This document shows, in pieces, positions 16,974 to 54,194 of a stretch of DNA of 64,000 nucleotides (position 1 is its first letter; each line of letters starts with the position of its first letter). The DNA is taken from assembly GCF_000016605.1 (NCBI RefSeq), contig NC_009440.1, positions 1-64,000 on the forward strand, in the 5' to 3' direction. The notes under the pieces are model-generated. The model had not been told where the DNA came from. It made no database searches and was given only the letters and a program-made list of their open reading frames with translations. The DNA is from Metallosphaera sedula DSM 5348 (GTDB lineage: Archaea > Thermoproteota > Thermoprotei_A > Sulfolobales > Sulfolobaceae). The position numbers were made by a program, and so were the translations under genes.

Positions 16974-17060
<87 letters not shown>

Positions 17061-17074
17061 CATTGGTGATTCTG

Positions 17075-51571: not shown

Positions 51572-51862
51572 ATGGCCATAATTGAAGTGGGTAGGATTTG
51601 CGTTAAACTATCTGGACGCGAAGCCGGGAGTAAATGTGTCATAGTTGATATAATAGACAATAATTTCGTCCTTGTAACAGGTCCAAAGAGCATCAGCGGG
51701 GTTAAGAGAAGGAGGGTAAACATATCCCATCTGGAGCCCACCGATAAGACAGTGGAGATAGGGAAGGGAGCCTCGGACCAAGAAGTAGAGGCCAAGCTGA
51801 AGGAGCAAGGACTAGTAGATTTTATGAAGGAAAAGGTGAAGGTAAAAATTCCAGTGATTTGA
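51572..51862 (+). CDS. rpl14e: 50S ribosomal protein L14e
   Basis: Protein of 96 residues. EVGRICVKLSGREAGSKCVIVD and the KRRRVNISHLEPTD block identify L14e (KOW/SH3-like). Its stop TGA is directly followed by the cbf5 ATG, the typical archaeal rpl14e-cbf5 pairing. Confidence 0.96.
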   Translation: MAIIEVGRICVKLSGREAGSKCVIVDIIDNNFVLVTGPKSISGVKRRRVNISHLEPTDKTVEIGKGASDQEVEAKLKEQGLVDFMKEKVKVKIPVI

Positions 51863-52883
51863 ATGGATTTTTCTCCCTTCGTGGAAAGGATAGACAAGTT
51901 TTGTGGTTATAATCAACCCTGGGAAGTTCGGAAGGATTACGTTCCGGCTGGGGATTTCGGAGTCCAGCCTGATAAGAGAACTATCAAGGACCTCATAAAT
52001 ACCTCTATTATTAACGTGGATAAGCCCCCTGGGCCAACTAGTCATGAAGTGGCCTTCTGGGTAAAGACCATGTTTAACCTACCCAGGGTGGGACACGGAG
52101 GGACCCTAGAGCCCTAATGGGCGGGGCAATCCCAAGGTAACCGGCGTCCTACCCATAGGTTTAGGGAAGGCCACCAAGATAATGAGCGTGGTAACGAAGT
52201 CGGGTAAGGAGTATGTATGTTTAATGGAGGTCCATTGTGATTTTCAGGAGGAAAGGCTTAGGGCGATTGCCAAGGAGTTCGTTGGGACAATATATCAAAA
52301 GCCACCCGTGAGATCTTCGGTGAAGAGAAGGGTAAGGAAGAGGAAGATCTATTCGCTGGAGGTTCTTGAGATGGAAGGAAGAAGAGTCCTCATGAAAATC
52401 TCCTCAGAACCTGGAACCTACATGAGGAAGATTTGCCACGACATGGGCATCCTCCTGGGTTGCGGTGCCCACATGAGGGAATTGAGGAGAACAAGGTCAG
52501 GAATATTCACCGAGGATACAGTTGTAACGTTACAACAGGTTTCGGAGGCCCTCTATCTTTACCGCAACTGCGGTGAGGAGGATGAGCTGAGGAGAATACT
52601 CATTCCCATGGAGATGGCCTTCTGCGGGATACCCAAGATAATCGTAGACGATGAGACAGTGAACTCCCTAGCCTACGGCTCCCCCTTGATGGCGCCAGGA
52701 ATAGTGGCCTTTCAGGGATTTAAGAAAGGAGATACGGTGGCGCTCATAACTTGGAAGGGAGAGGGAATAGCCTTGGGAAAGGCCCTGGTAGATTCAGTGA
52801 GTATGGGTAAGAGGGGAGAGGTAGTGAAGCCTGAAAGGGTATTAATGGATAAAGATGTGTACCCGAAGGCATGGAAGAAATGA
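51863..52883 (+). CDS. cbf5: tRNA/rRNA pseudouridine synthase Cbf5, intron-containing
   Basis: Two exons, 51863-52109 and 52129-52883, give about 333 residues after removal of a 19-base intron. Cbf5 is the catalytic subunit of the H/ACA guide RNP. Exon 1 has VDKPPGPTSHEV and ends RVGHGGTL; exon 2 starts PKVTGVLPIGLGKATK, so the joined motif is GTLDPKVTG with the catalytic Asp codon (G|AT) formed only by splicing. KPPVRSSVKR, EPGTYMRKICHD and a C-terminal PUA domain (GSPLMAPGI) follow. Without splicing the frame ends at TAA 52115. Introns in crenarchaeal cbf5 are established. Confidence 0.95.
52110..52128 (+). other. cbf5 mRNA intron with bulge-helix-bulge motif
   Basis: Exon helix GGGA (52100-52103) pairs with TCCC (52130-52133). 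Central four-pair helix CCCT (52104-52107) pairs with GGGG (52123-52126). Intron helix GCCC (52111-52114) pairs with GGGC (52119-52122) with loop TAAT. The three-base bulges AG|A and CA|A hold the two cleavage sites. This is a complete hBHBh' substrate for the archaeal splicing endonuclease. Confidence 0.93.
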
Positions 52884-53431
52884 TGTTCGTGGTAACCGAC
52901 GTGGTTAACGGAGTCCCTCTGAACTTGATCAGTTACCCAGGTCTCTTCTCCAAGAAGAGGCTAGACCTGGGAACTAGGGTACTCCTGGAGAACCTCATAA
53001 TCCCTGAGGAGGGAGCAGTAGCTGATGTGGGATGCGGTTACGGACCCATAGGGATATACGTTGCCATCATAAATCCTAGGCTCTCAGTTTACATGCTCGA
53101 CGTGAATCCGTTGGCGGTGAAGGCCTCAAGGGAGAACGTAGAGAGGTATGGATTAGGGGATAGGGTGAAGGTGCTCAAGAGCGATCTGCTCTCAGGATTT
53201 GAGTTCAGGGTTAAGGCCATTTACTCGAATCCTCCGCTTTCCAAGGGAGTAGATGTACTGGAAAGGCTTGCCAGAGATGCTCCAGAAAGACTGGAGAAGG
53301 GTGGATGGGTGCAAATGGTCCTGTATAAGGGAGAGGGAAACGCTGTGAAAATATTTAGTGAGTACTTCCCTGAAGTTAAGGTCATGAAAAGCGTGAAGGG
53401 ATACTCAATTGTCCTTGCCGTAAACAATTAA
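52871..53431 (+). CDS. RsmC-like SAM-dependent methyltransferase
   Basis: About 186 residues, a class I methyltransferase. Motif I VADVGCGYGPIG near 52-63, acidic MLDVNPLAV and motif IV SNPPL (with YSNPPLSKG) are those of small N6/N2-guanine RNA methyltransferases (RsmC/RlmG type). N-terminal NLISYPGLFSKKRLDLGTRVLLE also matches this group. Target RNA unknown. The ATG lies within the cbf5 3' end (13-bp overlap; ATGs at 52880 and 52883 are alternatives), linking it to rRNA/tRNA modification. Confidence 0.85.
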   Translation: MEEMMFVVTDVVNGVPLNLISYPGLFSKKRLDLGTRVLLENLIIPEEGAVADVGCGYGPIGIYVAIINPRLSVYMLDVNPLAVKASRENVERYGLGDRVKVLKSDLLSGFEFRVKAIYSNPPLSKGVDVLERLARDAPERLEKGGWVQMVLYKGEGNAVKIFSEYFPEVKVMKSVKGYSIVLAVNN

Positions 53432-53454
53432 AGAGAGCAGACAGATAGTTAAGT

Positions 53455-53550
<96 letters not shown>

Positions 53551-54194
53551 TCTGGAATCCTTTTAGTCAGTTGGTAGGTTCCTTGGAAGGTATTATGAAC
53601 CCATCGCTCTACAGGTAGCCAGTTGTACAATGCTAGATACTCGCCATAAGGAACGGGCTCATGCGTCCTCGATTAGGTTTAATTGGTATCAGCCCTCTTG
53701 GTCGGAGACCGATGGGTAAGAAGTCTAGGGGCTGACCTTCTGTCACAAAAGTAGTGAAACGAGTTTACTCAAAACTTGTGCAATTCATTGTCCATTCTTG
53801 TTGGTTACACCTCAGTTGATAGACTCCTAAGACCTAGCTAAACTGGAGGGGTATGAATGCCTCCAACTGTCCAAAACTTAGCTCAGGATGTTCTTTAGAT
53901 TTGAGCGTTCAGCGGGTTTTTAGTCCTCTATTAGAAAATCAGAAAATGTGAAATCGGCAGCTCTTGCGCTCGGAAGCTGTACGAGTTAAGGTTCCTAACC
54001 TTTTGCGCTACTTGTAGTGCTATCCTGTTGGATATTTCCCTCAAGCTTACTGTCCAAAATAAGTAGCTTAAAGATTTTAAAGTACCATCTAGGATGATTC
54101 AACAAAATAGCTCAAGGAGCGGACATCGATCTTGACGGAAACTTAAGGACTCCCTTAAGGAAGCTTTATAACGCAGAATTCTAAATTCCTAATT
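53551..54194. other. 644-bp hairpin-rich non-coding region
   Basis: No gene over 45 codons is supported on either strand. It contains a stem TCAGCCC/GGGCTGA (53689-53735) enclosing TCGG-AGA-CCGA, then four hairpins in a row: CAGCT/AGCTG (53958-53979), AAGGTT-CCT-AACCTT (53988-54002), GCGCTAC/GTAGTGC (54005-54020), TATCC-TGTT-GGATA (54021-54034), and later CTTAAGG-ACTC-CCTTAAG (54142-54159). A minus frame at 53633-53764 is open for 44 codons without a good start. Could be an unrecognised structured RNA or decayed mobile DNA. Confidence 0.5.
54164..54171 (+). promoter_or_regulatory. TATA box of tRNA-Gln
   Basis: CTTTATAA begins 31 bases before the tRNA 5' end, the spacing expected for an archaeal tRNA promoter. 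Confidence 0.65.

What the first reader, a model, noticed from the sequence alone, without database searches (positions are those of the whole stretch)
52100..52133. 19-base intron splits the catalytic Asp codon of cbf5
All three helices and both three-base bulges of the splice motif can be drawn exactly. Splicing yields GTLDPKVTG; without it the protein stops after residue 84. Placing the intron in the codon for the catalytic Asp makes all Cbf5 activity depend on the tRNA splicing endonuclease, a possible feedback link with tRNA processing. Cbf5 introns are known in crenarchaea; the exact structure and codon split are read here.
Basis: partly seen in the sequence, partly recalled or inferred. 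Interest (0 to 1): 0.55.

Follow-up and report, generated by a model that had tools for sequence, protein, structure and literature searches.

The report
Known cbf5 intron with stop-codon safeguard
A tiny RNA segment interrupts the key codon of an essential archaeal RNA-modifying enzyme and has to be cut out of the message; this was already known for this organism, but a survey of relatives suggests the segment is older and more widespread than described and is kept in a form that stops translation whenever it is not removed.

Summary
In detail: 52100-52133 folds exactly into a bulge-helix-bulge, and removing 52110-52128 (19 nt) restores GTLDPKVTG and a 333-residue Cbf5. [quoted passage not shown]

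Two results that my paper searches did not show in print. (1) The intron also lies at this exact split outside the window's order: 70 of 134 resolved loci there, 28 families; 218 of 310 loci overall. (2) All 47 introns with length divisible by three carry an in-frame stop, in 32 separate clades of an exon-2 tree; in the order, where loci were not picked by frame, 36 of 36 against 7.4 expected with structure kept. Stop words by frame are 148/41/42. No retained intron found leaves the frame open. Eukaryotes show this and explain it by nonsense-mediated decay, which archaea are not known to have (recalled).

The parts
51863..52109 (+). cbf5 exon 1 (ATG to first base G of the Asp83 codon)
52110..52128 (+). 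19-nt bulge-helix-bulge intron
   Evidence: fold; homologous introns; Yokobori 2009 table
52100..52103 (+). outer helix, 5' strand GGGA (pairs 52130-52133 UCCC)
52104..52107 (+). central helix, 5' strand CCCU (exonic; pairs 52123-52126 GGGG in the intron)
52108..52110 (+). 5' bulge AG|A, cut between 52109 and 52110
   Evidence: cut rule from PMC2738675
52111..52122 (+). inner hairpin GCCC-UAAU-GGGC
52115..52117 (+). TAA stop in the frame of exon 1, inside the intron loop
   Evidence: in-frame stops across relatives
52127..52129 (+). 3' bulge CA|A, cut between 52128 and 52129
52130..52133 (+). outer helix, 3' strand UCCC
52129..52883 (+). cbf5 exon 2 (AT of Asp83 to stop); TIGR00425/NF003280 Cbf5
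51572..51862 (+). ribosomal protein L14e gene, its stop directly abutting the cbf5 start (context)
52871..53431 (+). methyltransferase-like gene overlapping the end of cbf5 (context)

Best explanation
A bulge-helix-bulge pre-mRNA intron in cbf5, cut by the tRNA splicing endonuclease and ligated to rebuild the catalytic Asp codon (shown by others in related species; inferred here from sequence). My addition: the intron is maintained so that any message that keeps it cannot yield a full-length protein. Introns that would keep the frame (multiples of three) always hold an in-frame stop, and others shift the frame and often hold a stop as well. The likely reason (inferred) is that cbf5 messages are translated before or without splicing often enough that a full-length Cbf5 with a peptide inserted at its active site, able to join H/ACA particles but not to catalyse, would be harmful. 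The exonic codons flanking the cut are held by the splice structure rather than by the protein.
For: Fold and restored frame. Same codon split in 148 of 176 loci of the order and 70 of 134 outside, with 8 more loci seen later, none a multiple of three. Multiples of three: 47 of 47 with in-frame stop, 33 genera, 14 families; in the order 36 of 36 vs null 7.4, sd 2.3, maximum 16 in 1000; one per genus 25 of 25 vs 4.7, 0 of 2000 reach it; 32 clades on the exon-2 tree, all with stop, mean null chance 0.24 (45 of the 47 introns are on that tree). Other lengths: order 63 of 112 vs about 19.5; outside 22 of 59 vs about 10.6. Stop words by frame 148/41/42 over all, 110/23/20 in the order. Codons ACC-CTA before the cut: 177 of 218 with intron, 2 of 92 without; elsewhere in exon 2 of intron genes ACC is 21% of Thr and CTA 20% of Leu. 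Central helix changes on both sides: C-G to T-A in 9 loci at pair 2 and 6 at pair 3. Two EndA-type genes.
Against: No RNA data here: splicing, retention and translation of retained message are not measured. Outside the order the first 46 intron loci were picked because their exon-2 frame was short, which favours stops in multiples of three; the check is that 30 of 30 long-frame loci and 12 of 12 resolved were intronless, and the unbiased order set carries the claim. Outside the order the frame bias is weaker (38/18/22), and for lengths 3n+2 there 9 of 31 vs null 5.2 lies within the null range. The enrichment also in frame-shifting introns is more than a pure full-length-product safeguard needs. 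A crude tRNA-intron control showed no frame-0 preference (11/7/18 in 44 ARAGORN introns) but many of its boundaries are doubtful.
Confidence: 0.8

Rival explanations
1. Early-termination quality control: the in-frame stop serves to end translation at once on unspliced message, so that the ribosome leaves and the splice structure can re-form, or so that uncoupled transcription is terminated or the message decays. The full-length product is not the point.
For: Stops are enriched also in frame-shifting introns, where a frameshift would already break the protein: order 63 of 112 vs about 19.5. Median distance from the Asp codon to the first stop on unspliced message is 5 codons, maximum 53, over 218 introns.
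Against: The rule is absolute only for multiples of three (47 of 47) and about half for the rest (85 of 171), the pattern expected if the full-length product matters most. A ribosome stopped in the loop still covers the motif (inference).
Confidence: 0.3
2. Regulatory gate: splicing of cbf5 reports the load on the splicing endonuclease and turns Cbf5 down when tRNA precursors compete (the first reader's feedback; close to the negative regulator proposed by Watanabe and Yokobori).
For: Active Cbf5 needs splicing. Negative regulation is proposed in PMC2738675.
Against: No regulatory element or measurement; intron loop and length vary freely (13 to 76 nt); 92 of 310 loci have no intron.
Confidence: 0.12
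3. Not an intron but a frameshift mutation, sequencing error or programmed recoding.
For: The frame is broken in the genome.
Against: Six Metallosphaera-group genomes carry a 19-nt insert at the same spot (L002-L007); 218 loci, one codon split, central helix kept through both-sided changes; published cDNAs in relatives.
Confidence: 0.01
4. The in-frame stops are a by-product of AT-rich hairpin loops, composition or shared descent.
For: 89 of 99 first stops in the order lie in the hairpin loop.
Against: Frame preference 148/41/42; nulls keeping helices, loop place and composition give 7.4 of 36; 32 separate clades with stops at codons 2 to 10 and all three stop words.
Confidence: 0.04

Closest known systems
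Crenarchaeal cbf5 pre-mRNA intron (Watanabe 2002, Yoshinari 2006, Yokobori 2009)
   Same: Same gene, same codon split, same splice motif; M. sedula itself listed with 19 nt (PMC2738675; the two older papers only as cited there).
   Different: That paper knows it only in Desulfurococcales and Sulfolobales, 16 to 44 bp, and notes that some 3n introns do not change the frame. Here: 28 families outside the order, 13 to 76 nt, and every 3n intron has an in-frame stop.
Counterselection of stop-free 3n introns in eukaryotes (Paramecium, Jaillon 2008; Yarrowia, PMC2911113)
   Same: Introns of length 3n without a stop are avoided (passages of PMC2911113; Jaillon 2008 only as cited there).
   Different: There explained by nonsense-mediated decay of spliceosomal-intron retention; here a protein-spliced intron in archaea, not known to have that pathway (recalled), and no exception in 47.
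Archaeal tRNA and rRNA bulge-helix-bulge introns
   Same: Same motif and enzyme.
   Different: Not translated; no reading frame to protect. The rough tRNA control showed no frame-0 preference.

Membership tests
Crenarchaeal cbf5 intron | insertion between first and second base of the catalytic Asp codon of cbf5 | tested here: met
   Asp83 aligns with GTLDPKVSG of PDB 2aus
Crenarchaeal cbf5 intron | bulge-helix-bulge with cuts between second and third bulge bases | tested here: met
   AG|A and CA|A
Crenarchaeal cbf5 intron | splicing seen in cDNA | not testable with these tools
   No RNA data here; reported for other species
EndA-processed intron | hetero-oligomeric splicing endonuclease in the genome | tested here: met
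   two PF01974 genes at 2126726-2126983 and 2168661-2168900 of the genome; that they form the enzyme is inferred
Cbf5 (H/ACA pseudouridine synthase) | spliced product matches the curated equivalog | tested here: met
   NF003280 428 bits (cut-off 242), TIGR00425 383 bits (cut-off 238)
Stop-free 3n intron counterselection | introns of length 3n lack stop-free members beyond chance | tested here: met
   47 of 47 with stop; order 36 of 36 vs 7.4
Stop-free 3n intron counterselection | acts through nonsense-mediated decay | not tested
   not known in archaea (recalled)

The most novel reading that the evidence does not exclude
The cbf5 intron goes back to an ancestor of much of the archaeal phylum, and natural selection keeps it translation-proof: without nonsense-mediated decay, archaea purge introns that could be read through, which means unspliced cbf5 message is routinely met by ribosomes. 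The Asp-codon position makes any read-through product a dead enzyme that could still occupy H/ACA particles.
Probability: 0.7. Interest if true: 0.65.

Novelty: already known. Interest (0 to 1): 0.5.

Why it matters
Why this intron persists has been open since 2002 (PMC7714728 says its function is not known). The stop rule turns this into a testable claim: unspliced cbf5 message is translated and read-through is costly. It would be a case, outside eukaryotes, of selection on introns for translational failure. Practically, gene finders split cbf5 in these genomes, and the wider range shows where else they will fail.

Tried and rejected
Second intron: three loci flagged with a TGA inside exon 2 (L039, L063, L065) show no internal stop in exon 2 by tblastn; I take the flag to be the terminal stop (inference). 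Motif scan as evidence on its own: rejected, as frequent in shuffled windows. Gain versus loss on the tree: at least 19 changes between intron and none on a FastTree of exon 2, which cannot give direction; common ancestry of the introns is inferred from identical position and motif. Real tRNA introns as negative control: the fetched loci held mostly intronless tRNAs; 44 ARAGORN introns gave 11/7/18 by frame, a weak control. Excised intron circles in print: passages of PMC12558985 do not mention cbf5. Paper searches for a wider distribution or for the stop rule in archaea showed none in their listings; the library holds open-licence papers only, and the stop-rule searches were few.

Rows left out: 19 of 197 order genomes (7 without match, 12 with partial or weak match) were not fetched; 3 of 179 order loci (L159, L179, L182) lack the junction; 68 of 208 outside genomes were not fetched; 6 of 140 outside loci were unresolved by motif and are not in the counts (four later shown to have 13-14-nt introns, two none); four same-class loci (L326-L329, introns 67, 32, 19, 14 nt) are also outside the counts. 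L034 (Nanohalarchaeota, intronless) is in the 29 intronless but not in later counts.

Full report
What is there. The window is bases 1-64000 of a single-contig genome of 2,191,517 bp, the size I recall for Metallosphaera sedula; close named relatives are M. javensis and M. yellowstonensis. cbf5 starts at 51863, directly after the stop of a ribosomal protein L14e gene. At the catalytic motif the frame runs GGG ACC CTA GAG CCC TAA and stops after 84 residues. Bases 52100-52133 fold exactly into a bulge-helix-bulge, -16.8 kcal/mol. Cutting between the second and third base of each bulge removes 52110-52128 and joins G to AT, giving GTLDPKVTG and a 333-residue protein that passes both curated Cbf5 models; Asp83 aligns with GTLDPKVSG in PDB 2aus.

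How far it is from chance. The motif alone is not remarkable: about as many strict motifs appear in shuffled windows. Its place and conservation are. I searched 197 genomes of the window's order with the exon-2 protein; 190 had a match. I fetched 179 loci from 178 of them and could place the junction in 176: 148 have an intron, 28 do not, and every intron splits the codon as G|AY. Of the 148, 146 have a complete central helix and 139 also an inner helix of at least 3 bp; shuffled introns reach that in 0.2%.

It is known. Yokobori 2009 (PMC2738675; [quoted passage not shown] sedula genome annotation ignored it, states that it must be spliced for a functional protein, and repeats an earlier proposal that it is a negative regulator.

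Wider range. Yokobori finds the intron only in Desulfurococcales and Sulfolobales. In a search of 250 genomes of the phylum many outside the order had an exon-2 frame too short for a continuous gene. I fetched 140 loci outside the order: of 134 resolved, 70 have an intron at the same split, in 28 families. The sample is not a prevalence estimate, because 47 of the 140 were chosen for a short frame. Lengths run from 13 to 76 nt. A tree of exon 2 needs at least 19 changes between intron and none.

The stop rule. In the order, 36 introns have a length divisible by three, and all 36 contain a stop in the frame of exon 1. Nulls that keep the helices, the loop position and the composition give 7.4 (sd 2.3, maximum 16 in 1000). 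Taking one intron per genus and length class, 25 of 25 against 4.7. Outside the order, 11 of 11 against 3.9, with the caveat that most of those loci were picked by short frame; as a check, 30 of 30 long-frame loci and 12 of 12 resolved long-frame loci have no intron at all. Together 47 of 47, in 33 genera and 14 families; 45 of them are on the exon-2 tree, where they form 32 separate clades with stops at different codons and of all three kinds. Introns of other lengths shift the frame; 85 of 171 also hold an in-frame stop, above the null in the order (63 of 112 vs about 19.5) and less clearly outside (22 of 59 vs about 10.6; for 3n+2 alone 9 of 31 vs 5.2, within the null range). Stop words by frame are 148, 41 and 42. 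On unspliced message the first stop comes at a median of 5 codons after the Asp codon and never later than 53 (218 introns). A rough tRNA-intron control, with doubtful boundaries, gave 11, 7 and 18.

Constraint on exons. Thr-Leu before the cut is written ACC-CTA in 177 of 218 intron genes and in 2 of 92 intronless genes, although ACC and CTA make up only 21% and 20% of Thr and Leu codons elsewhere in exon 2 of intron genes. These bases form the central helix and the first bulge. Where the exon differs, the intron follows: C-G becomes T-A in 9 loci at the second and 6 at the third pair of the central helix. The outer helix is dispensable if the inner one is present: 29 of 33 introns with an inner helix under 3 bp have a complete outer helix, against 63 of 185 of the others.

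How it most likely works. Shown here: structure, position, conservation, stop rule, codon constraint, presence of two endonuclease-type genes. Shown by others in relatives: cleavage and cDNA. Inferred: endonuclease cutting in this species, and that selection acts against translation of retained introns. The best reading is that cbf5 message meets ribosomes before splicing is complete, and that an intron read through in frame would give a full-length enzyme with a peptide in its active site, inactive but able to enter H/ACA particles. That stops are also enriched in frame-shifting introns suggests an added benefit of early termination, my main rival. Eukaryotic genomes show the same avoidance of stop-free 3n introns and it is explained there by nonsense-mediated decay (passages of PMC2911113); archaea are not known to have that pathway (recalled).

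On the feedback idea. Nothing tested here supports or refutes a sensor of endonuclease load. Free variation of intron length and loop and the many intronless lineages argue against a conserved signal within the intron.

Verdict. The object is already known; its wider range and the stop rule appear new within the searches listed, and the second makes an old question testable.

Noticed in passing
L330 (genome G197, family f12): Cbf5 in one 797-aa frame is split by a long insert after the GTYIRKLC stretch; the insert has intein-like and LAGLIDADG-like motifs by eye (no family search run), so probably an intein in Cbf5.
   Followed up: partly
L305, L307, L308, L310, L311, L313, L319, L168, L170, L218: cbf5 introns of only 13 nt, shorter than the 16 nt minimum in PMC2738675; they rely on a complete outer helix with little or no inner helix.
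   Followed up: partly
L057, L106, L111 versus L059, L074, L101 (genus code g52): Within one genus code, three cbf5 genes have the intron (36, 37, 40 nt) and three lack it; the intronless ones no longer use ACC-CTA, as if constraint was relaxed after loss.
   Followed up: partly
window 53454-53552: tRNA-Ser(TGA) 22 nt after the methyltransferase gene downstream of cbf5; its length and the sequence next to the anticodon suggest a short intron, so a second endonuclease substrate may sit beside cbf5.
   Followed up: no
window 16975-17061: A clear tRNA by Rfam (64 bits) for which ARAGORN gives a four-base anticodon and no amino acid; perhaps an intron or odd anticodon loop.
   Followed up: no
218 cbf5 introns: Only 47 of 218 (22%) introns have a length divisible by three; not corrected for relatedness.
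   Followed up: no
window 52871-52883: The methyltransferase-like gene starts 13 bases before the end of cbf5, so its translation may be coupled to that of cbf5 and suffer when cbf5 is not spliced.
   Followed up: no
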